Below, one piece after another: positions 25,354 to 35,978 of a DNA stretch of 60,919 nt. The DNA lies in NCBI GenBank assembly GCA_017538365.1, contig JAFYIZ010000012.1, forward strand, positions 1 through 60,919, read 5' to 3'. The notes beneath the pieces are model-generated. The model saw nothing but the letters and a program-made list of their open reading frames with translations. It did not search any database and was not told the origin of the DNA. Each line of letters begins with the position of its first letter. Position 1 is the stretch's first letter. This DNA is from a bacterium (GTDB lineage: Bacteria; UBP6; UBA1177). Made by a program: the position numbers and the translations under genes.

Positions 25354-25893
25354 ATATTTCTCCTAAATCAAACATCAAAAGAACGTATTTCCGCTATATA
25401 AGCACAAAAACGCAAAAGCGAAGTATTTTAGCAATATTTTCTAAAATTAAAATAAATATCTATAAAAAAGGCAAAACGACCCGAAAAAGGTTTCAACCCG
25501 ATCATTTTCTGATAATCAATAACAAAATTATTTATCACATCGTAGCACCATTAAAATCTTTTGAAAAATCAGGAAGTTATTTTGCAGAACCCTCTCAGAC
25601 GCTTCGTGCGGAGCTTCTTGTTATGCAAAATTTTAAATAAATTAATTTTATACTCAAAACTATTGAAGTTAAAAAAATAAAACTTTCAAATTACTACATT
25701 AATTTTTTGACTTTTTAATACAAACATATAAAATATTTTTTGAATTTGATCTTTGGGAGAAAAATTTATTCATAAAAAACTTGATTTATTTTTATTTAAC
25801 AGTAAACAAACGACATAATGACCGAAAAGAGGGTTTATATCAAACACTTTGTGTCCCTCGAGTAGGTCTTTTTTTATTTTCCGGAGCCAAAAA
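25354..25893. other. 540-bp intergenic region with one extended stem-loop
   Basis: This AT-rich gap lies between the divergent ftsH and NYN genes. It holds an inverted repeat ATTTTGCA (25579-25586) / TGCAAAAT (25624-25631). The repeat encloses a smaller hairpin, GCTTC-GTGC-GGAGC, within a GC-richer patch. No protein-coding frame or tRNA is evident. It may hold promoters and possibly a small RNA, but that is not shown. Confidence 0.35.
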
Positions 25894-26529
25894 ATGGAAA
25901 TAGTAACAATGATCGACGGCGGTTTTTTGAGGAAAAAGTATCATGCAGCGTTTAAGGAAAACATTTCTGCTTTGCAAATCAAAAATTTTGTAGGCAACAT
26001 CATAAAATATTCCGGTTTCGGCGGAATAAATACTTACAGAGTTTATTTTTATGACTGCAAACCATGCGATGCGAAGACGACCTACCCTGTTTCAAACAAA
26101 GCTCTCAATTTGGCAAAAACGACTCAATATGACGAAAGCCTGAAACTTATAAACGATATCCGCGGCCTGGATTTTTTTGCGTTTAGAGAGGGACAGCTTT
26201 CTTTTTCAGGATGGAAACTAAAAAAGAAATGCTACAAAGAAACACCTTATACTGATGAAAGTTTCGATCTTGATCTGGCTCAAAAAGGAGTCGATATCAA
26301 AATCGGTCTTGATATCGCATGGATAAGCTACAACAATATTTCCGAGAGGATACTTCTTGTTACGGGTGACAGTGATTTTATTCCGGCGATAAAAACTGCA
26401 CGGCGCAACGGGATTTTTGTTCATCTTTTTACTCTGGGACATCACGTAAAAGATGATTTAAAGTTAAATGCCGATGTTTGTATCGAAAATTCTCTTTCAG
26501 ATCTTTTAGAGAAAAATGAAGATTATTAG
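25894..26529 (+). CDS. NYN domain (LabA/DUF88-type) protein
   Basis: A 211-residue protein of the NYN family, whose PIN-like fold has predicted ribonuclease activity. The N-terminus has the MIDGGFL motif with Asp8. The central GVDIKIGLDIAWIS and the ILLVTGDSDFIPAIKTAR segments carry the conserved acidic residues of the active site. The frame is open from 25849, but ATG 25894 follows CCGGAG and begins at the conserved strand. It stands alone in a region with repeats and may be accessory. Its RNA target is unknown. Confidence 0.87.
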   Translation: MEIVTMIDGGFLRKKYHAAFKENISALQIKNFVGNIIKYSGFGGINTYRVYFYDCKPCDAKTTYPVSNKALNLAKTTQYDESLKLINDIRGLDFFAFREGQLSFSGWKLKKKCYKETPYTDESFDLDLAQKGVDIKIGLDIAWISYNNISERILLVTGDSDFIPAIKTARRNGIFVHLFTLGHHVKDDLKLNADVCIENSLSDLLEKNEDY

Positions 26530-26598
26530 AGTCTCTCTTATTGTAGGTTGTGTTTGAAAATCTCTTAAATCAAGTCCTTGTTTTGTGAAATCTCTGAG

Positions 26599-26615
26599 AG
26601 CGCGGGCGACCCGCC
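26599..26615 (+). repeat. short copy of the GC-rich hairpin repeat
   Basis: AGCGCGGGCGACCCGCC shares its core with the elements at 58986-59010 and, in reverse complement, at 7481-7505. It lies in the gap between the convergent NYN and DUF805 genes. Confidence 0.45.
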
Positions 26616-26688
26616 GAAATCATTTCGACTTCGCTCAATGACCGCGCTTGCTGAGCTTGTTCGCTGCACTACCTCACACAACGGACAC

Positions 26689-27069
26689 TTAGATATCTTC
26701 CGTTTGATCTGGAAATTTCGGATCGGGACCGTATGGATTCGTCCCGATTTCACCGGGCTGGGCAGCCCAATACAGGAAAATCCAACTGCCGACTATCGGG
26801 ATCAAAGAAACGAACCAGTATTTTCCTGATTTGCCTATATCATGAAGACGCCGCCAGCACAATGCAATAGAGGGACACAAAACAGCAAGACGGTATGTAG
26901 TCAACGGAATATTGTAATGCCCTTTACCGGGGAATCCCCAGATAAGAATAAGTATCACAGTCACAATGAGGTTAAACAGAACAAAATACCAGTATTCGCT
27001 TCTGCGGGCACGCCCCTTAAACTCAGCATACTTTGAAAAAACGCCTATTACAGCCTGAAACACGTTCAT
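26689..27069 (-). CDS. DUF805 membrane protein
   Basis: A 126-residue membrane protein of the DUF805 family. It shows the typical start (FKGRARRSEYWYFVLFN), the central CWRRLHDIGKSGKYWFVSLIP motif, and a C-terminal NPYGPDP motif. There are about three transmembrane helices. The family's function is unknown. The gene converges on the NYN gene and lies 37 bases downstream of the UshA-like gene on the same strand. Confidence 0.93.
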   Translation of the reverse strand: MNVFQAVIGVFSKYAEFKGRARRSEYWYFVLFNLIVTVILILIWGFPGKGHYNIPLTTYRLAVLCPSIALCWRRLHDIGKSGKYWFVSLIPIVGSWIFLYWAAQPGEIGTNPYGPDPKFPDQTEDI

Positions 27070-27106
27070 GAGAATCTCTATGTAGAAATTATTTGAATTA
27101 AATTGA

Positions 27107-28648
27107 CTATTTTTCTGAAACTTTCGGAGGTTCGATGTATTTTTCGCGTTTGATGTATTCGATGACAGCTGCCGGAACGGAGATTTTGGTGTCGTTGAGT
27201 TTAAGTTTTGTCATCATGTCAAAGCCGTCGCCGCCGCCTGCAACAAAGGAGTTGACTGCGAAAGTGTAGGTTTTGTTCGCGTCTAAAGCAGCGCCGTTTA
27301 CTTTGATGTTCGACGCTTTGCCGCCGGAAACGGAAAATTCTACACCGTAGAAGTGAAGGTATCCGCCCTGCCCCTTGTTTTTAAGTGAAAGTTCAATAAT
27401 TTCGGCAAGCTGAGCACCGCTGACAGAACCTGTAACGATCGTGTCTTCGAACGGGAAAACGCTGTAGATATCCATTTCGTTGACGATTCCGCTGTTGAGG
27501 CCCTGTCTTATCGCACCGCCGTTAGCGAAAGCGATATCGACATTCGTTCTGTCCTTCATTACTTCGGCAATGAAAACACCGAGCGTTGAAGGATTGTTGC
27601 GGACGAAATTTCTTTCGCCGTTGAAGGAATCAGAAAGCTCTCCGACAACCTGAGTTGAAAATTCACAGTTGAAATCGTTGAGCATTTTCAGCATCGCTTC
27701 GTTTTCAACAAGGTCTTTGCCTCTGTTTTCGTAAGTTACGCTGCCGTTGCTTTTAACGATTTTTTCTTTGACGTTGACCGGGTAAAGTTTGAAATTTTTC
27801 TGAACGAGTTCCTTGCCTTCAAAGTAGAAATCGAATCTGCCGACCCACTTTCCGAGTCCTTCTGTCTGGATTATCGGAACATTGTTGACATAAACCGGTT
27901 CATTCATCTGGATTTTCGTTCTTCCGCCGATGATAAGGTCGATTCCGGGAACTTCTTTTGCAAGCAGTCTGTCGCTCGGATAACCGTCTGCATCCTTATC
28001 TTTGTCGGAATAACCGAGGTTTGAAAGAACAACTACGAAATCGTTGTTTTTCTTGAGTTCCTCTACTGCTTTTTTTGCAGCTTCGATCGGATCCTGAACC
28101 TTTACAAGCCCTTCAACACCGGCATTCGAGATTTTCTCAAGTTCCGGAGTCGTGATGCCGACGAAAGCGACTTTAACGCCGTTTATCATCTCTTTCTGGA
28201 TGAAAGATTTACCGACCTGTTTGTTGTTTTTATAGAAAAGATTTGCCGCAATAAACGGGAATCTCGCCTCTTTCTGCATTTTTTCGAAAGTCTTCATTCC
28301 AAAGTCGAACTCATGACTTCCGATAAGCATTCCGTCGTAACCGATAAGGTTCATGCCGGTTATCATAGGAAGGTTTTCGCAGATGTTGCTTCTGGGATCA
28401 CCCATCGTTACGTTGCCGCTGCTGAGTACGACCACATCGCCGTTCGTGAGCTGAACTTCGTTTCTGATCTGTTCGATAAGGGTTTTCTGCGCAGCAAGAC
28501 CGCCTGTTTTCGGGCTGTCCGGAGCGTCGAACGCCCATGCCATACCGTGAGAATCGTTCGTAAAAAGGATCGTCAGAAGTCTCGGTTCCGCAAAAAGCGA
28601 AAAACTGAGACCGCAGATAAAGAGGAAAACCAAAAAATTTCTTTTCAT
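27107..28648 (-). CDS. UshA-like 5'-nucleotidase family protein with degenerate metal site
   Basis: A 513-residue exported protein with a signal peptide (about residues 1-20), a metallophosphatase domain and a 5'-nucleotidase C-terminal domain. Asp32 and His34 (FTNDSHG) are kept. The usual GD of the bridging Asp is Asn79 (SSGNVTMG), the usual GNHEFD is GSHEFD (Ser111), the usual SHLG is SNLG (Asn210), and the usual GGHSH is GGRTK (Arg243, Lys245). Most metal ligands are therefore lost. The substrate-domain motifs FANGGAIRQGL and GGGDGFD remain, so it may bind nucleotides without hydrolysing them. ATG 28648 is preferred over the upstream in-frame start at 28660 because GGAGG precedes it. Confidence 0.85.
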   Translation of the reverse strand: MKRNFLVFLFICGLSFSLFAEPRLLTILFTNDSHGMAWAFDAPDSPKTGGLAAQKTLIEQIRNEVQLTNGDVVVLSSGNVTMGDPRSNICENLPMITGMNLIGYDGMLIGSHEFDFGMKTFEKMQKEARFPFIAANLFYKNNKQVGKSFIQKEMINGVKVAFVGITTPELEKISNAGVEGLVKVQDPIEAAKKAVEELKKNNDFVVVLSNLGYSDKDKDADGYPSDRLLAKEVPGIDLIIGGRTKIQMNEPVYVNNVPIIQTEGLGKWVGRFDFYFEGKELVQKNFKLYPVNVKEKIVKSNGSVTYENRGKDLVENEAMLKMLNDFNCEFSTQVVGELSDSFNGERNFVRNNPSTLGVFIAEVMKDRTNVDIAFANGGAIRQGLNSGIVNEMDIYSVFPFEDTIVTGSVSGAQLAEIIELSLKNKGQGGYLHFYGVEFSVSGGKASNIKVNGAALDANKTYTFAVNSFVAGGGDGFDMMTKLKLNDTKISVPAAVIEYIKREKYIEPPKVSEK

Positions 28649-28746
28649 AAGGACCTCCAAAAATTAGACGGTGCCATTTATATATGAAATAAATAATTTA
28701 GTCAAAAATCCGCACATATGTTTAACAAAACGGGATCAAACCATTC

Positions 28747-28774
28747 TTTACTATTTTTATTTTTGAAGTATAAG
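28747..28774 (+). promoter_or_regulatory. candidate sigma-70 promoter for the UbiA-family gene
   Basis: TTTACT (28747-28752), 16 bases, TATAAG (28769-28774), 20 bases before the ATG at 28795. It is the likely start of the following long run of + strand genes. Confidence 0.4.
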
Positions 28775-28794
28775 CAAATGCTTTTGGAGGTTTG

Positions 28795-29667
28795 ATGAAA
28801 CACGTTTCCGACTTTATAAAATCGGCCCGTTTCGCCGAAGTTTCGATACTTTTGGGATTTCCGATGATAGGTCTTTTCTTTGCCTTTACATCACCGGATC
28901 AGCTTGTTTCGCTTCCTGTTTTTCTTTTTGCAGCGGCGATTTTCTCGCTTTTTACAGCGATTTACGCCTTCAACGGATTTGCCGGAACAGAAGACGACAA
29001 ACACAATTCGCGCCTTGCTGACCTCGCCGGGAAACGCCGTTCGTTCATCGTGACCCTTGTTGTTTCGCTTTTTGTTTCGCTTGTCCTTTTCTTTCTGATA
29101 AAGCCGGTTCTCGCCGCATTTTCGGCCGTAAGTTTTCTGCTCTGGTGCGTCTATTCGTTCCCCAAAAAAGGGTTCAAATATCGCCCGTTTCTCGGAACAC
29201 TGATACATTTCATCGGTCAGATAATACATTTTCTCATGGGTTACACCGTTCTGGCTCCGCTTGACAAAGGGAGTGCCGCAGCCTCTGTTTATTTTGCCAT
29301 TCTTTTTTCCGCAGGGCACATAAACCATGAACTTATCGACCACGACGCCGATGAAAAAAGCGGAATAAAAACGGGAGCCGTCTCTTTCGGAGTTTCGTCC
29401 TGGGAAAAGGTTTCCTTTGCACTTTTTCTGACTGCAGCGCTCTATATTTCAGCCCTTTCGCTGATTGAAAAAGAGCTTCTTCCGATCTGTTTTCCCTTCA
29501 TAATTGCAGGAATCATCCACATAATTTTCAAAATATGCAGATTCAAAAAAGCTCCGATTCAGGCGAAATTTCTTGAAGAGAGGCATTTTTACAGAATACT
29601 TTACTTTGTCGCAGGAATACTCTTCATAGCGGCGAAAATTTTTGATTTTGCAAGTTTAATCAAATGA
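28795..29667 (+). CDS. UbiA-family prenyltransferase
   Basis: A 290-residue membrane protein with about eight transmembrane helices and the two Asp-rich motifs of the UbiA superfamily. The first is in NGFAGTEDDKHNSRL (a variant of NDxxDxxxD) and the second in HINHELIDHDADEKSGI. Family members attach prenyl chains to aromatic or lipid acceptors using Mg-bound diphosphate. The acceptor here is not known; no quinone-pathway gene is adjacent. The start is ATG 28795 with GGAGG upstream, not the TTG at 28792. Its stop overlaps the next ATG by 4 bases. Confidence 0.82.
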   Translation: MKHVSDFIKSARFAEVSILLGFPMIGLFFAFTSPDQLVSLPVFLFAAAIFSLFTAIYAFNGFAGTEDDKHNSRLADLAGKRRSFIVTLVVSLFVSLVLFFLIKPVLAAFSAVSFLLWCVYSFPKKGFKYRPFLGTLIHFIGQIIHFLMGYTVLAPLDKGSAAASVYFAILFSAGHINHELIDHDADEKSGIKTGAVSFGVSSWEKVSFALFLTAALYISALSLIEKELLPICFPFIIAGIIHIIFKICRFKKAPIQAKFLEERHFYRILYFVAGILFIAAKIFDFASLIK

Positions 29668-30656
29668 ATACGATGAATTACAACGCAAACATAATTTATT
29701 TTTCGGGGAAAGCCGATGCTGAAAAAATAGCTGAAAAGCTGGCACTCTCAGGAATAAAAGCCAAACTTTTTCCTGTAAAAAAGTGCATCATCACTGAAGA
29801 TATCTCAGAGTATTTCGTTTTTGACAGAACACAGGCCGATCCGCTTGAAAAAGCCTATCTGCGGGACGGAAAAACCGATCCTGCGGCTCTCCTTTCGATT
29901 CAGAAGATAATTCTCGACAGAATTTTGTCCGAAGCTGACGAAAACACGATTTTCTTTATCGAAGAGAGTTTTGTTCCCGAAAGTTTTTACATCAGAAAAG
30001 CCCTCTACAGAAACCGCAGAACCTTTTTTTCTTTCGGCAGACTCGCTCCAGAATCAGGTCTTTCGGTCGTTCGCGGCGCGCTTGACCTCGGTTTCCACGA
30101 GGCTTCGTTTCTCGATTTTGAAGAACCGGAAAAACCGTCGTTTCCGGCAGCAAAGCTGCCGCAGTTCCCTGAATTCAACGGAATTATTGCAATAGATGCC
30201 CCGCCGGACTCGATTCCTGTTAGGTATCTGCGCTTTTTCAGAAGTCCGCTTCAGCTCACGAAAGGACTCATCCGCTTTTGCAATTTACTTCTTCCGGGTG
30301 AAAAACACGGAAAAATTCTCGTTTACTCGCCGAAAAAAGAGGCTGACTGCTACACGGCTTCAGAGCGGACAGCGCAGTTCATCAGGCTTCTTGGAGCACG
30401 CGGAAAAACTTTTTCAGATTTTTCGGAACTGCCATCCAACGCAACAGTCCTCACCTGGTCAACGAAACGGTTTTTCTCGCTTCTCAAAAACGGTTTCAGA
30501 CCGGTTCCGATGACAAAAACACTCTCTGCAAAACTTTTCGACCCGAAAATAAAGTCTCCCGCAGAGCTCATAGCATCAAATCCTGACAAAGAATCGTTCA
30601 TAAAAATAAAAGATTTTCTCCACAACTGCGAATTGAGGAATTTCAAGATAAAATAA
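29664..30656 (+). CDS. conserved-looking cytosolic protein, function unknown
   Basis: A 330-residue protein, translationally coupled to the UbiA-family gene (ATGA overlap). I recognise no family. It starts with an alternating strand-helix pattern (ANIIYFSGKADAEKIAEKLA), has a strand FNGIIAIDAPP near the middle, a KILVYSPKKEAD strand, and later TVLTWSTKRFFSLLKNGF. The pattern suggests an alpha/beta fold, but no active site is evident. No signal peptide or transmembrane segment is seen. Being coupled to a prenyltransferase suggests a partner role, which is inference. Confidence 0.62.
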   Translation: MNTMNYNANIIYFSGKADAEKIAEKLALSGIKAKLFPVKKCIITEDISEYFVFDRTQADPLEKAYLRDGKTDPAALLSIQKIILDRILSEADENTIFFIEESFVPESFYIRKALYRNRRTFFSFGRLAPESGLSVVRGALDLGFHEASFLDFEEPEKPSFPAAKLPQFPEFNGIIAIDAPPDSIPVRYLRFFRSPLQLTKGLIRFCNLLLPGEKHGKILVYSPKKEADCYTASERTAQFIRLLGARGKTFSDFSELPSNATVLTWSTKRFFSLLKNGFRPVPMTKTLSAKLFDPKIKSPAELIASNPDKESFIKIKDFLHNCELRNFKIK

Positions 30657-30693
30657 TCTCTCTTTCCCAGGTCTTCGCGCGCGCTTTATTTAT

Positions 30694-30721
30694 TTGCTTT
30701 TAATTTTGTTTTAAGGATAAT
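30694..30721 (+). promoter_or_regulatory. candidate sigma-70 promoter for the transglutaminase gene
   Basis: TTGCTT (30694-30699), 16 bases, GATAAT (30716-30721), 25 bases before the ATG at 30746. It implies that the transglutaminase and downstream genes can be transcribed apart from the UbiA pair. Confidence 0.4.
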
Positions 30722-30745
30722 AGGCGGTTTTTTGGCGGGGCATAA

Positions 30746-32125
30746 ATGAGTAAGCCGGTTTTTCTTTTTTTATCACTCTTTTTTTCATTTTTCATTTTCG
30801 CTCAGACGAATGTCTACAGAATCTCGATGATGGGAGCTGAAATCGGTAAAAGCACCGAGAGTTGGGAAGAGAAAAAAAATCATGACGGCAGCTGTGAAAT
30901 CGTGCTGCATTCAGTTTCCGAGATGAGTTTAGCCCGCGGTCTTGATTCGATGACAATAAAATCAGACACCACCCTTTCAGCCGACTGCATAACATTTGAA
31001 CCGAAGCGGATAAAAGGCGAAATATCGGAAGGCGGCTCTAAAATTTTTGTCGAGGGTCTCAACAGAAGCGGCGTTTTCGAAACCAGTATGACAAAAAACG
31101 GAAGCAGAGAGACTTCAAGTTTTCAGGTAAAGAAAAATTCTACATTTTTCGGAATGATTTTCAGAAAACTGAGTGCTGACGAGCTCCTCAAAGGCGGAAG
31201 AACTTCAATAATTTCCGAAGAAAGCCTTACAGAGAGCGAAGTCTCATACACGGCCTCGAAAAATGCCGACGGAACAGTTTCTGCAACGGTCGTTTTTCAG
31301 GGAATCCCGATAAAATACACCGTTTCAAACAAAAAAGTGCTCCGATCAGAGATACAGGGCGGTCTTATCGTCTACACTCTTGAATCTCTGCCGGAAGTAA
31401 AAAACACTCAAACTGCCGGAAATCCTGACATTCTGCAGAATACGAAACTTTTCAACGAGGGAATTGCTATAAAATATCCGCGGAAAACACAGAATACAAT
31501 CTTTCAGGTCGAAAATGCAGATTTCGCGTCAATTCCCGAAACATGCTTTCAGAAAAAAGGAAACGGCACAGTGACAGTAAGCAGCGATGCGGCAAACTGC
31601 AGAAATCTGCCCGAAGCATCGGACACTCAGCCAAACATAATCGAAGACAGCAGTAATCCCGAAATCGTCCGTGCGGCCCGTAAAATCGTCCTCGGTGCAC
31701 CGAATCAGCAGGAAATGGTGAAACGAATCACGAAATTCGTTTACAAGCACATAAACAACAAAAACTACAACCACGGAAACATGTCGGCAGGCGAAGTTCT
31801 GCGTACAAAAAGCGGCGACTGTACCGAACACTCGGCACTTTTTGCGGCACTCTCGCGTGCTGCAGGGATACCAACGAAGATGGTTTACGGCGTTGTTCTG
31901 AACGCAAACGGAGAATTTTTCTTCCACAACTGGAACGAGGCTTTTGCAGACGGAAAATGGATCACCGTTGATTCGACTTTCAATCTGATTCCGGCTGATT
32001 CCTCGAGAATTACGCTTATTTACGGCGGTCCAGACAGCAGATCGCGTGAGCAGGTTTCCCTTTCTGTCCTGAAATTTCTGAACAACACAAAAATTTTTGC
32101 AAGAGGCTTTTCAAATGAAAAGTGA
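30746..32125 (+). CDS. exported transglutaminase-like protein
   Basis: A 459-residue protein with a signal peptide (residues 1-19). An N-terminal region of about 300 residues is beta-rich, of unassigned family. A C-terminal transglutaminase-like domain has the catalytic triad Cys359 (GDCTEH), His394 (FFHNWNE) and Asp409 (VDSTFN), all intact. Bacterial members are mostly proteases or peptide-bond-handling enzymes in the envelope. It overlaps the following sensorless kinase gene by 11 bases, an odd pairing that suggests a shared job. Confidence 0.85.
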   Translation: MSKPVFLFLSLFFSFFIFAQTNVYRISMMGAEIGKSTESWEEKKNHDGSCEIVLHSVSEMSLARGLDSMTIKSDTTLSADCITFEPKRIKGEISEGGSKIFVEGLNRSGVFETSMTKNGSRETSSFQVKKNSTFFGMIFRKLSADELLKGGRTSIISEESLTESEVSYTASKNADGTVSATVVFQGIPIKYTVSNKKVLRSEIQGGLIVYTLESLPEVKNTQTAGNPDILQNTKLFNEGIAIKYPRKTQNTIFQVENADFASIPETCFQKKGNGTVTVSSDAANCRNLPEASDTQPNIIEDSSNPEIVRAARKIVLGAPNQQEMVKRITKFVYKHINNKNYNHGNMSAGEVLRTKSGDCTEHSALFAALSRAAGIPTKMVYGVVLNANGEFFFHNWNEAFADGKWITVDSTFNLIPADSSRITLIYGGPDSRSREQVSLSVLKFLNNTKIFARGFSNEK

Positions 32126-32723
32126 GAGTTTTACCTGCAGCGATTTTCTGATAAAGGCGGGCCATGAGATCGTCAACATAATGACACCGCTTGAGCATAT
32201 TGAATACCTGGAAGAAGAGATGATTTCTGCAAGAGTAACACGCGGCGAAAGACTTGGGCGGCAGCTCGGAAGGATCGGCAGACTGATTTCGGGCGAAAAC
32301 GGAAACGAGCCTTACGAATTCAGCGAATTTGTCTACAACATCAAGGAAAAATGCCGCAGTCTTGGAATAAAGGTTTCTGCGGAAAACAAAAACTACAACT
32401 CAATCGAGACAATAAAAGGAAAAAACCTGATGACGTGCGTGATTGACGAAATACTTGCAAACTGGAAAATGCACGGCAAAAGTGAATTTTCGATAAATAT
32501 CGCCGATGAAAAAACGATCGTTTTCAAAAACGGCTACGATCCGGCGTCTTTGAAAAACATCGGCAGCACGAAAGAAGAACTTGCAAAACCGTTTGTCAAA
32601 GGAGCTTTCTCCAAAGGCTCGGGACTCGGTTTGTATATTATTGAACTCGCTTCTTTAGAAGGAGGTTTCACTTGGAATTTATCGGCAGACGAAAAATATT
32701 TCTCCTTATCGCTTGTCTTCTGA
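32115..32723 (+). CDS. sensorless histidine kinase-like protein
   Basis: A 202-residue cytosolic protein. It has an H-box-like sequence with His17 (AGHEIVNIMTPL), a helical linker, and a HATPase_c domain: the N-box is DEILANWKMHG, and the G-boxes are at FKNGYD and SKGSGLGLYIIELA. There is no sensor, transmembrane or receiver domain, so its input must come from a partner. ATG 32115 follows AAGAGG and fits the H-box position; the frame is open from 32097. It overlaps the transglutaminase gene by 11 bases and the next gene by 52 bases. No response regulator is adjacent. Confidence 0.78.
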   Translation: MKSESFTCSDFLIKAGHEIVNIMTPLEHIEYLEEEMISARVTRGERLGRQLGRIGRLISGENGNEPYEFSEFVYNIKEKCRSLGIKVSAENKNYNSIETIKGKNLMTCVIDEILANWKMHGKSEFSINIADEKTIVFKNGYDPASLKNIGSTKEELAKPFVKGAFSKGSGLGLYIIELASLEGGFTWNLSADEKYFSLSLVF

Positions 32724-33607
32724 TCACGACCGCTCTTTTTGCGGACGAAGACAGGGTTTATATGGAAGATCCGCTTTCTCCGGTTTCTGATACTTCGTGG
32801 GGAAACCGCTCCAGAGAGCTCAGGCACGCGATAGATACGCAGAACTGCGGCAAAGGCTGCGGCGCGCTGCTCAGTCATAATGCACAATTTGTGATGAACC
32901 CGGCGGCACTGATGATCAACAAAATGTTCACTGTCGCGGCTCTTTACCAGTTCGTCGAAGCAATGTCGGTATCGGTTAGCGACTCTAAAACATCGGTAAT
33001 CGGCGGCGGAATAATGTATTCCTACAACTACGGACTTCACCACATCAAAACGAATTTCGGTTTTCCGATATATCCCGGCTACATTTACGGCGGTATAAAC
33101 CTGAACAACTACATCGGCAAATTCGAACCGACTCAAAACGACGACACCAATTCCCACTCTTTCGACATCGGCATCGTGGCGCAGATAACTCCTTTCGTGA
33201 ATCTCGGTTTTGCCGCTCTCGACGTATGGACTTTCTACGGACGCGATATCCCGAGAAAACTAAGCTGGAATTTTGAAACCAACATAAGAGACATGTTTTT
33301 CATAAACACCGGCTGGCAGTACCATCTGCAGCAGGGAAAAGAGAAGTTCGCGAACAAGAGAACAACTTTGAAAGGCTTCGATTTCTACACCGGTTTTGAG
33401 TTCAGATACGCGCTTTTCAGAGCAGGATTCGGCTTCAACAACATCTCTTTCAGCAAAAAACTTACGTGGGACACAACGACAAAAACATTCTCGCTCGCCT
33501 TTTACAAACCGGGCGCAGGCGGAATTTACGGCAATTTCATGTATAACGAATCAAACTACATTACTTTTTCGATAAATGTCGTTTGGGAACCCTCATTCGG
33601 CAGCTAA
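32672..33607 (+). CDS. outer-membrane beta-barrel-like protein (TTG start)
   Basis: A 311-residue protein with a signal peptide (about residues 1-24, ending LFA) and many amphipathic strands rich in Gly and aromatic residues. Examples are GGGIMYSYNYGLHH, GYIYGGINLNNYIG and FDFYTGFEFRYALFRAGFGF, as in outer-membrane barrels. It begins with TTG at 32672, supported by GGAGGT at 32661-32666, and lies inside the last 52 bases of the kinase gene. The family is not identified. trpS follows 13 bases later. Confidence 0.65.
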   Translation: MEFIGRRKIFLLIACLLITTALFADEDRVYMEDPLSPVSDTSWGNRSRELRHAIDTQNCGKGCGALLSHNAQFVMNPAALMINKMFTVAALYQFVEAMSVSVSDSKTSVIGGGIMYSYNYGLHHIKTNFGFPIYPGYIYGGINLNNYIGKFEPTQNDDTNSHSFDIGIVAQITPFVNLGFAALDVWTFYGRDIPRKLSWNFETNIRDMFFINTGWQYHLQQGKEKFANKRTTLKGFDFYTGFEFRYALFRAGFGFNNISFSKKLTWDTTTKTFSLAFYKPGAGGIYGNFMYNESNYITFSINVVWEPSFGS

Positions 33608-33620
33608 AAAAGGAGGAAAA

Positions 33621-34601
33621 ATGAGAGCTTTATCAGGAATAAAACCGACCGGTACGCTGCATCTGGGCAACTATTTCGGCGCAGCGCAGCAGTTTGCTGC
33701 AATGCAGCAGAAAAATTACGAAGGCTACTATTTCATTGCCGACTATCACACGCTTAACACCCTGCCCGATCCGGCAAAACTTACCGAAAACACATGGAAC
33801 ATCGTTCTTGACTACCTCGCTTTCGGACTTGACCCTGAAAAAAGCGTGATATTTCTGCAGTCGCTTGTTCCCGAAGTTGCGGAACTCGCATTCATACTCG
33901 GCAACTACACGCCGATGGGACTTATGCAGCGCGCCCACAGCTACAAGGAAAAAACGGCAAAAGGCGAACTCATAAACGTCGGACTTTTCTACTATCCGCT
34001 TCTCATGACTGCCGACATTCTGCTTTACAAATCGAACATCGTTCCGGTCGGAAAAGACCAGAAGCAGCATGTTGAGATTGCCCGCGACATAGCGGAAAAG
34101 TTTAACCTTTTCTACCAGAAGGATCTTTTCGTGATCCCGGAGCCTTTCATTCCCGAAAGCGTTGCGATCGTTCCGGGAACAGACGGGCAGAAGATGTCGA
34201 AAAGCTACGGCAACACTATCGAAATGTTCGCTGCAGATCCGGTTCTCAAAAAGCAGATCATGGGAATCGTCACCGATTCGACCCCGCTTGAAGAGCCGAA
34301 AGACCCTGAAAAATGCAACGTCTACAACATTTACAAACTCATAGTTCCGGCAGAAAAAGCCAAAGAAATGGCTGACAAACTCTCGGCAGGCGGATACGGT
34401 TACGGACATGCAAAGAAAGAACTTTTGTCCGCAGTCCACGAATTTTTCGATCCGATGAGAGCGAAACGCGCCGAGCTTGAAAAAAACATGGATTACGTAA
34501 GAAAAGTTATCGCGGAAGGAAGTGCAAAAGCGCGTGAAACCGCGGTCGAAACAATAAAAGAAGTCAAAAAAACAGTCGGTTTAGTCGGCAATATCTACTA
34601 G
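33621..34601 (+). CDS. trpS: tryptophan-tRNA ligase
   Basis: TrpS charges tRNA-Trp with tryptophan. The 326-residue class I synthetase has the HIGH-type motif (PTGTLHLGNYF) at its N-terminus and KMSKS (GQKMSKSYGN) near two-thirds of its length, with normal size for the short bacterial form. The frame is open from 33576, but ATG 33621 follows AGGAGG and begins at the conserved RALSGIKPTG segment. It lies within a run of envelope genes. No leader or T-box is seen upstream. Confidence 0.98.
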   Translation: MRALSGIKPTGTLHLGNYFGAAQQFAAMQQKNYEGYYFIADYHTLNTLPDPAKLTENTWNIVLDYLAFGLDPEKSVIFLQSLVPEVAELAFILGNYTPMGLMQRAHSYKEKTAKGELINVGLFYYPLLMTADILLYKSNIVPVGKDQKQHVEIARDIAEKFNLFYQKDLFVIPEPFIPESVAIVPGTDGQKMSKSYGNTIEMFAADPVLKKQIMGIVTDSTPLEEPKDPEKCNVYNIYKLIVPAEKAKEMADKLSAGGYGYGHAKKELLSAVHEFFDPMRAKRAELEKNMDYVRKVIAEGSAKARETAVETIKEVKKTVGLVGNIY

Positions 34602-34610
34602 GAGGTTGAT

Positions 34611-35978
34611 ATGAAATTTAATAAAATTCTCCTGTTTTCAGTACTTTTCCTTTTCGTCGCAAGGCTTTCAGCCGATTTCGCGATTGACGGCAACCGTTTC
34701 AAGACCTCGCCTTTCGCAGACGGGTTCCTGACAGTATACGGTTCAGAAGGACTTGAAGAAGGATTGCTCGGCGTCGACTTCATTATGAATTTCCAGCACG
34801 CGCCGATCATCGTATCTGGAGGAAATAAAGTTATTGCAAACCAGCTCACTTCCGACATTTCGATTTTCTACAGCGTCGTAAAGTGGTTTGACCTCGGCGT
34901 TTCGCTTCCGGTCATCCTGTTTGAAAACGGTGACGGCTGGAACAAGGACGACAATCTTGCAAAAGCGGGTGTCGGCGACCTCAGGCTCGTTCCGAGATTC
35001 CAGCTTTTCAGCCTTTTCGATAAACTGATTTCGATGTCGGTAATCACTGAAGTCACCGCTCCGACAGGCAAACAGATTCACTCGGCACTTGGAAGCAATC
35101 AGTTCACATTCCGCCCCGCAATCGCTCTCGGAACTCAGTCAAAATGGATTGATGCGGCTCTCAACCTTTACTATCACGTTCTTCCAAAGCAGACTTTCGC
35201 GACATCGAAATTCGACGATGAATTCGGTCTCAAACTCGGACTCAACGTTCATGCAATAGAAAAACTGCTTGATGTAAACGCTGAATTTCATTCGGCTACT
35301 TCGATAAAATCACCTTTCAAGAACGATGCTCAGGACAACATCGAAATAGGCGGCGGCGTCCGCTTCAAAACTCCGGCAAATATTGATGTTATCGCAGGTG
35401 CGTTCGGCGGTTTCGGCAAAGCGGTAGCAGTTCCCAAATACCGCATTTACGCCGGAATTTCGTGGAACATGAACGTCCTTCCGCCGGAAGAAGAGCGCAA
35501 TAAAGCAGAATTCAAACTGAAAAAGAGAGAGGCAAAACAGGAAGAACAGCCGAAACAGGAAGAGAAAAAGCCTGAAGAAAAGAAAGTCAAAAAGGCTCCG
35601 AAGAAAACCGCTCCGAAACAGGAGGCAGCACTTCCGCAGCAGCCTGTAAAAACCGGCGAAAAACTGCCGAATGAGGTTCACTTCATGCACGAATCAGACT
35701 ACATCGCAGATACTGTCGAAATCGAAAAAGTCGCTCTCATCCTGACAAGAAACTTCATGCTGAAAATCAGAATCGAAGCCCACACCGACAGGCATGAAAA
35801 CGCATCTTTCGCACAAAAACGCGCTAATGCCGTAAAAGCCGTACTTATCAAAAACGGCGTTGAAGCGAACAGAATAAAAATCAAAATCATCGGTGCTGCA
35901 GAACCTGTTGCAAACGGCGACACCGAGCCCGATATGGTTAAAAACAGAAGAGTCGAATTCTTCGTCGTAACGGATTAG
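34611..35978 (+). CDS. OmpA-family outer-membrane protein
   Basis: A 455-residue exported protein with a signal peptide (residues 1-21). A beta-barrel-like N-terminal domain spans to about residue 295. A charged Lys/Glu/Pro/Gln-rich linker follows (about 300-345), then a C-terminal OmpA domain with EAHTDRHE, QKRANAVKAVLIKNGV and KNRRVEF, which binds peptidoglycan. It would tie the outer membrane to the cell wall. It starts 9 bases after trpS and ends 13 bases before the flavoprotein gene. Confidence 0.9.
   Translation: MKFNKILLFSVLFLFVARLSADFAIDGNRFKTSPFADGFLTVYGSEGLEEGLLGVDFIMNFQHAPIIVSGGNKVIANQLTSDISIFYSVVKWFDLGVSLPVILFENGDGWNKDDNLAKAGVGDLRLVPRFQLFSLFDKLISMSVITEVTAPTGKQIHSALGSNQFTFRPAIALGTQSKWIDAALNLYYHVLPKQTFATSKFDDEFGLKLGLNVHAIEKLLDVNAEFHSATSIKSPFKNDAQDNIEIGGGVRFKTPANIDVIAGAFGGFGKAVAVPKYRIYAGISWNMNVLPPEEERNKAEFKLKKREAKQEEQPKQEEKKPEEKKVKKAPKKTAPKQEAALPQQPVKTGEKLPNEVHFMHESDYIADTVEIEKVALILTRNFMLKIRIEAHTDRHENASFAQKRANAVKAVLIKNGVEANRIKIKIIGAAEPVANGDTEPDMVKNRRVEFFVVTD

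What the first reader, a model, noticed from the sequence alone, without database searches (positions are those of the whole stretch)
28795..33607. Overlapping UbiA, unknown, transglutaminase, sensorless kinase and outer-membrane genes: candidate undescribed envelope system
Five + strand genes run closely: UbiA-family and unknown overlap by 4 bases, transglutaminase and kinase by 11, kinase and outer-membrane protein by 52 with a TTG start. The mixture of lipid prenylation, an exported Cys-protease-like enzyme, a histidine kinase without a sensor and a barrel protein is not one I know. Tight overlap implies joint function, though a promoter at 30694 may split the set in two.
Basis: inference. 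Interest (0 to 1): 0.66.

Follow-up and report, generated by a model that had tools for sequence, protein, structure and literature searches.

The report
Conserved enzyme–kinase–membrane-protein operon, plus neighbours
The five genes are really two separate units: a deeply conserved three-gene envelope operon (an exported transglutaminase-like enzyme, a cytosolic histidine kinase, and a predicted outer-membrane protein whose start lies inside the kinase gene), and a prenyltransferase pair that is only loosely its neighbour in one rumen genus of the little-known phylum UBP6.

Summary
The genes, coordinates and overlaps are as described. The organism is a rumen member of candidate phylum UBP6. 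Comparison with relatives splits the set in two. Unit B, transglutaminase–kinase–outer-membrane protein, is intact in all 19 genomes that have the kinase, across three families of the order. The overlaps are conserved too: TG/HK 8–11 bp (1 bp in one genome) and HK/OMP 52–58 bp, always with a Shine-Dalgarno inside the kinase gene and a TTG, GTG or ATG start. Unit B has its own promoter at 30693–30722, conserved in 13/13 congeners and unique in the genome. Unit A, UbiA–unknown, has a different promoter, adjoins unit B in 9 of 14 loci of the genus, is often followed by an EtfB gene that this genome has lost, and is unlinked outside the genus. The 'sensorless kinase' is a genuine divergent histidine-kinase core that lost an N-terminal domain in this genus and is dispensable. 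No partner regulator was identified. The parts are known kinds; the arrangement appears undescribed.

The parts
28746..28774 (+). promoter-like element of unit A, CTTTACTATTTTTATTTTTGAAGTATAAG
   Evidence: Conserved upstream of UbiA in most of 11 congeners, absent in G008 where UbiA follows an HK-RR pair
28795..29667 (+). UbiA-superfamily prenyltransferase (unit A)
   Evidence: PF01040 E=1.7e-19; Asp motif 2 conserved, first Asp of motif 1 replaced by Gly64
29664..30656 (+). unknown soluble protein (unit A), found only in UBP6 among the genomes searched; predicted alpha/beta protein
   Evidence: No Pfam/NCBIfam/PDB sequence match; AF2 pLDDT 87; only weak Foldseek matches to GT-B-like and other Rossmann-type folds, TM<0.4
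30676..30683 (+). CGCGCGCG element upstream of the unit B promoter
   Evidence: Present in most congeners, only copy in the window, but such a copy is expected by chance; function unknown
30693..30722 (+). unit B promoter TTTGCTTTTAATTTTGTTTTAAGGATAATA
   Evidence: Conserved in 13/13 congeners whatever lies upstream; TTTTTTGCTTTTA also follows a terminator-like hairpin in g2, g3 and one g4 genome; only match of its kind in the genome
30746..32125 (+). exported transglutaminase-like enzyme (TG, unit B)
   Evidence: PF01841 E=2.9e-21; invariant Cys359/His394/Asp409 and four further invariant Cys; signal-peptide-like N-terminus; N-terminal half weakly DUF3108-like in one remote homologue
32115..32723 (+). 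soluble histidine-kinase core (HK, unit B), overlaps TG by 11 bp
   Evidence: Invariant His17, Asn21, Glu112, Asn116, Gly170, Gly172; AF2 plus Foldseek: DHp and CA domains, best AdeS 7cch E=3.7e-7
32657..32665 (+). Shine-Dalgarno of the OMP gene, inside the HK coding sequence
   Evidence: GGAG core kept in 19/19 genomes
32672..33607 (+). predicted outer-membrane protein (OMP, unit B), TTG start, overlaps HK by 52 bp
   Evidence: Overlap 52-58 bp in 19/19 genomes; signal-peptide-like N-terminus; family confined to the UBP6 order apart from two remote matches
33621..34601 (+). tryptophanyl-tRNA synthetase, 13 bp downstream; adjacency to unit B seen in the genus only
   Evidence: TIGR00233 295.6 bits; adjacency

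Best explanation
Two adjacent, separately transcribed units. Unit B (TG-HK-OMP) is an ancient, order-wide envelope operon with its own dedicated promoter. Shown by sequence: an exported transglutaminase-fold enzyme with an intact Cys-His-Asp triad; a soluble, divergent histidine-kinase core with intact phospho-His and most ATP-binding residues; and an exported OMP-like protein whose ribosome-binding site and start lie inside the kinase gene at a near-fixed 52-58 bp overlap. Inferred: TG and OMP are the working pair at the periplasm/outer membrane (the enzyme processes, cross-links or matures the barrel or something it handles). The kinase is an accessory cytosolic two-component kinase/phosphatase (H-[ED]-x-x-N motif), made in proportion to its neighbours by translational coupling, and signals through a response regulator encoded elsewhere. 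Its relatives carry an extra N-terminal alpha/beta domain, possibly an input domain, that this genus has lost. Unit A (UbiA-unknown, often with EtfB) is an independent membrane prenyltransferase unit, next door through genus-level history.
For: Order-wide adjacency of TG-HK-OMP. Overlaps conserved in 19/19 genomes. Separate conserved promoters. UbiA-unknown located elsewhere in 5 of 14 loci of the genus, and EtfB between the units in others. UbiA, unknown and TG unlinked in other genera. Invariant catalytic and kinase residues. HK fold. HK absent but TG-OMP kept in G010, G013, G022, G023 and a second set in G007. Purifying selection. Long conserved co-directional overlaps are uncommon and reported as real only below about 60 bp (PMC2478687; PMC10666635).
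Against: No response regulator is linked to the kinase; the genome has 9 receiver domains and none could be assigned. The kinase G1 box is not the canonical DxGxG. The OMP barrel is not confirmed: no Pfam or PDB match and a non-significant comparison with PorV-type proteins. The TG substrate is unknown. In the basal clade G010/G007-C27, TG directly abuts the unknown gene, so units A and B may be one transcript there.
Confidence: 0.6

Rival explanations
1. One five-gene envelope system: UbiA modifies a lipid or protein, the unknown assists, and TG/HK/OMP act on the product.
For: In 9 of 14 loci of the genus UbiA-unknown sits beside unit B, and in G010/G007-C27 they abut with no promoter between.
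Against: Separate conserved promoters; several apparent separations within the genus on the tree; EtfB is the more frequent direct partner of the unknown gene (7 genomes); no linkage outside the genus, where TG-HK-OMP persists.
Confidence: 0.1
2. The kinase is not a signalling protein with its own regulator but a structural or allosteric cytosolic factor (or a phosphotransferase of the ChpT/Spo0B kind), kept mainly because its 3' end carries the OMP start.
For: No sensor, no linked regulator, hardly visible to Pfam, ChpT among the Foldseek matches; lost on several branches while TG-OMP stays.
Against: Phospho-His, N-box Glu/Asn and the G2-box glycines are invariant down to about 25% identity, whereas ChpT/Spo0B-type proteins lack a working ATP site (general knowledge); where HK is absent, OMP simply follows TG, so HK is not needed as a translation leader.
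Confidence: 0.2
3. Passenger clustering: HK is an unrelated orphan kinase held between TG and OMP only because the overlap makes separation costly; no functional link.
For: HK evolves faster than the OMP in G007 (55% against 83% identity); HK is dispensable; TrpS, an unrelated housekeeping gene, also follows in the genus.
Against: Adjacency and overlap persist in 19/19 genomes down to 25-35% protein identity, while flanking genes change.
Confidence: 0.15

Closest known systems
Two-component histidine kinases (HisKA/HATPase_c; e.g. AdeS, WalK/YycG, HK853)
   Same: DHp hairpin with invariant His, CA domain with N-box and G2 box, H-[ED]-x-x-N motif in nearly all members
   Different: No transmembrane or sensor part, non-canonical G1 box, below Pfam thresholds, no linked regulator, embedded in an envelope operon
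Transglutaminase-like putative cysteine proteases (PF01841, COG1305 type; PDB 3isr)
   Same: Core domain and Cys-His-Asp triad, exported; near full-length relatives in Poribacteria and Deltaproteobacteria
   Different: Only in the UBP6 order was it found with HK and OMP
PorV/FadL-type and other small outer-membrane barrels
   Same: N-terminal pattern resembling ...GxGxA......NPA after the signal peptide; weak hits to barrel families in the remote G026 homologue
   Different: Profile comparison not significant; family confined to UBP6
UbiA-superfamily prenyltransferases (PF01040; nearest NCBIfam PRK12875/PRK13595)
   Same: Nearly full-length domain match, motif 2 (DxxxD...GIKT)
   Different: First Asp of motif 1 replaced by Gly, well below every equivalog cut-off; product unknown
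LapG/LapD periplasmic proteolysis system (PMC4359373)
   Same: Idea of a periplasmic transglutaminase-fold cysteine protease acting on a surface protein under cytosolic control
   Different: No LapD-like inner-membrane receptor among these genes, a different transglutaminase-like family, and a histidine kinase instead

Membership tests
Two-component histidine kinase | Phosphorylatable His in DHp helix 1 | tested here: met
   His17 invariant in 19 orthologues; lies in model helix 81-102 of the long orthologue as His88
Two-component histidine kinase | N-box Glu/Asn and G2-box glycines of the CA domain | tested here: met
   Glu112, Asn116, Gly170, Gly172 invariant, Gly168 nearly so
Two-component histidine kinase | G1 box DxGxG | tested here: not met
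   Position holds an invariant Asn139 without the glycines; N-type G1 boxes occur in some real kinases (general knowledge), so ATP binding must be tested; the claim made is 'divergent kinase core by fold', not a canonical member
Two-component histidine kinase | Overall DHp+CA fold | tested here: met
   181 PDB matches at E<=0.001, top entries histidine kinases
Two-component histidine kinase | Cognate response regulator | tested here: inconclusive
   9 receivers in the genome, none linked to the kinase
Transglutaminase-like (PF01841) | Domain match above cut-off and Cys-His-Asp triad | tested here: met
   76.2 against 23 bits; C359, H394, D409 invariant
Transglutaminase-like (PF01841) | Cross-linking or proteolytic activity | not testable with these tools
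   Needs an assay
UbiA superfamily | Domain match above cut-off | tested here: met
   70.5 against 34.2 bits
UbiA superfamily | Asp-rich motif 1 NxxxDxxxD | tested here: not met
   NxxxGxxxDxxNxRL, one Asp missing; a divergent relative by domain, activity not assumed
PorV/UPF0164/FadL-like OMP | Sequence-profile relationship | tested here: inconclusive
   hhalign aligns the NPA motif region but E=0.21; no Pfam match
LapG/LapD system | LapD-type receptor and Peptidase_C93 enzyme | tested here: not met
   None of the ten proteins scanned from 25849 to 35978 matched such a family; the enzyme matched PF01841

The most novel reading that the evidence does not exclude
TG-HK-OMP is a previously undescribed envelope system in which a soluble histidine kinase, tied in amount to an outer-membrane protein by a start site nested 52-58 bp inside its own gene, reports or controls the state of a transglutaminase-modified outer-membrane structure. 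This would be an inside-out, sensorless form of two-component envelope control.
Probability: 0.2. Interest if true: 0.68.

Novelty: new variant of a known kind. Interest (0 to 1): 0.42.

Why it matters
I found no experimental study of UBP6 in the literature searched. An operon kept intact across its order, with an OMP family and a kinase variant found essentially nowhere else, points to a lineage-specific envelope function. The nested start is a well-supported long co-directional overlap conserved over deep divergence, and gives a clean test case for translational coupling between a signalling protein and a predicted outer-membrane protein.

Tried and rejected
Searched for the same operon outside UBP6: TG relatives in other phyla have no HK, OMP, UbiA or unknown neighbour within the fetched flanks. 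PorV/UPF0164 assignment of the OMP: not significant. Fold of the unknown protein: only weak, mutually inconsistent Rossmann-type matches, so no enzyme class is assigned. Sequence search of PDB for UbiA and OMP: nothing useful. Unknown protein on plasmids: none. A response regulator that co-occurs with HK: not resolved; receiver counts vary with genome and lineage. The generic promoter scan missed the conserved promoter. Literature searches for such a combination returned nothing relevant. A long-overlap artefact (mispredicted start) was considered and rejected because orthologues share the same start position, Shine-Dalgarno and signal-peptide n-region.

Full report
Observation. The five reading frames, their coordinates and their overlaps are as stated: UbiA 28795-29667, unknown 29664-30656, TG 30746-32125, HK 32115-32723, OMP 32672-33607. 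UbiA and the TG core are above Pfam cut-offs. The unknown, HK and OMP are not recognised by Pfam above cut-off. dN well below dS shows purifying selection on all of them.

Organism. Close relatives found by a contig search are mostly rumen and gut MAGs, two of them named UBP6 (UBA1177, UBA1196), so the window is from candidate phylum UBP6. The held genomes form one genus (g1) of 15 genomes, three further genera of the same family (g2-g4) and two other families of the order (f2, f3).

Synteny: unit B. TG, HK and OMP are adjacent in all 19 genomes with HK, down to 25-35% protein identity, in families f1, f2 and f3. The overlap of TG and HK is 8-11 bp (1 bp in G019). The overlap of HK and OMP is 52 bp throughout f1, 55 bp in f2 and 58 bp in f3, always in the same phase, always with a GGAG-type Shine-Dalgarno inside HK and a TTG, GTG or ATG start. 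In one survey all 715 co-directional overlaps above 60 bp were judged misannotations, with conserved ones seen just below that length (PMC2478687); overlaps of about 10-60 nt are several-fold rarer than short ones (PMC10666635). This overlap is therefore near the upper limit of what is accepted as real, and it is supported by deep conservation. HK is absent between TG and OMP in G010, G013, G022, G023 and the second set in G007, so TG-OMP is the core. A tree of TG+OMP places these on separate branches, suggesting several losses.

Synteny: unit A. UbiA and the unknown are adjacent in all 14 loci of the genus where both were found. They lie beside unit B in 9 (directly in G000, G014, G012, G010 and G007-C27; with an EtfB gene between in G001, G004, G006 and G011, plus a lipoprotein-like gene in G004) and elsewhere in 5 (G003, G007, G008, G009, G013). 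EtfB (PF01012 E=1.6e-32) directly follows the unknown in seven genomes and is missing from this genome and several relatives. In other genera UbiA, unknown and TG are in different places.

Promoters. Upstream of TG, TTTGCTTTTAATTTTGTTTTAAGGATAATA (30693-30722) and the following GGCGGTTTTTTGGCGGGG are conserved, with few changes, in 13/13 congeners although what lies further upstream differs. In g2, g3 and G018 a TTTTTTGCTTTTA run follows a terminator-like hairpin just before TG. The pattern TTTGCTTTTA-N10-15-ATAAT occurs once in the genome. UbiA has a different conserved element (28746-28774), absent in G008, where UbiA follows an HK-NtrC-type regulator pair. In G010 and G007-C27 TG abuts the unknown gene with no such promoter.

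The proteins. TG: signal-peptide-like start, invariant Cys359-His394-Asp409, four further invariant cysteines (C50, C81, C267, C285) that could form disulphides (disulphides inferred), PDB relative 3isr; one remote homologue has a weak DUF3108 match in its N-terminal half. HK: invariant G16-H17, N21, P25, E112, N116, G170, G172. The model of the long G015 form has a DHp hairpin and a CA domain, with best matches to histidine kinases. No membrane segment is apparent in the sequence. The long forms of g2-g6 carry about 75 extra N-terminal residues with predicted strands and helices, missing in g1. OMP: signal-peptide-like N-terminus, no Pfam or PDB relative; the family is present in 23 genomes of the order plus remote matches in G026 and G253, out of 290 genomes searched; a beta-barrel is likely but not shown. 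UbiA: motif 1 lacks one Asp. Unknown: confident alpha/beta model, no convincing relative.

Mechanism. Shown: conserved order, overlaps, promoter, intact catalytic residues. Inferred from family knowledge: TG acts in the periplasm on the OMP or its ligand; HK is a cytosolic kinase/phosphatase for an unlinked regulator; translational coupling sets the HK:OMP ratio. The response-regulator search was inconclusive: 9 receivers in this genome, more in most relatives, none linked.

Verdict. Observation confirmed, interpretation partly supported. The parts are known kinds of protein. The order-wide TG-HK-OMP arrangement with a nested start appears undescribed in what could be searched and is a moderate-interest lead. 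The five-gene system as proposed is not supported.

Noticed in passing
L067, L068, L069, L072, L075, L076, L077 (after the unknown gene): An ETF beta-subunit gene directly follows the UbiA-unknown pair in seven congeners but is missing from this 97.6%-complete genome and from G012-G014: a possible clue that unit A belongs to electron-transfer metabolism.
   Followed up: partly
L072:48-2791: In G008 the UbiA-unknown-EtfB unit lies 9 bp downstream of a histidine kinase-like and NtrC-type response regulator pair and lacks the conserved unit A promoter.
   Followed up: no
G007, contigs C27 against C28/C55 (L080, L079, L078): Assembly G007 (UBA1196) holds two divergent sets of UbiA, unknown, TG and OMP; one resembles G010, so the bin is probably a mixture of two genomes (6% contamination listed).
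   Followed up: partly
L084:2602-2850, L086, L088, L090, L094, L095: About 75-residue N-terminal domain on the kinase outside the genus, with predicted strands and helices; a candidate input domain without known relatives.
   Followed up: partly
window 30676-30683: CGCGCGCG just upstream of the unit B promoter, kept in most congeners; possible regulator site.
   Followed up: no
L253, L255, L256: In family f3 UbiA relatives (two copies in some genomes) sit beside what look like B12-binding radical SAM genes and large membrane proteins, a different context from the genus of the window.
   Followed up: no
L085, L087, L089: In g2 and g3 the unknown gene lies beside genes that look like a cobalamin-type ABC transporter; in g4 (L089) beside a biotin synthase-like gene.
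   Followed up: no
L087, L249: The g3 genome encodes lipoproteins with long (D/N)TGDTGN low-complexity linkers.
   Followed up: no
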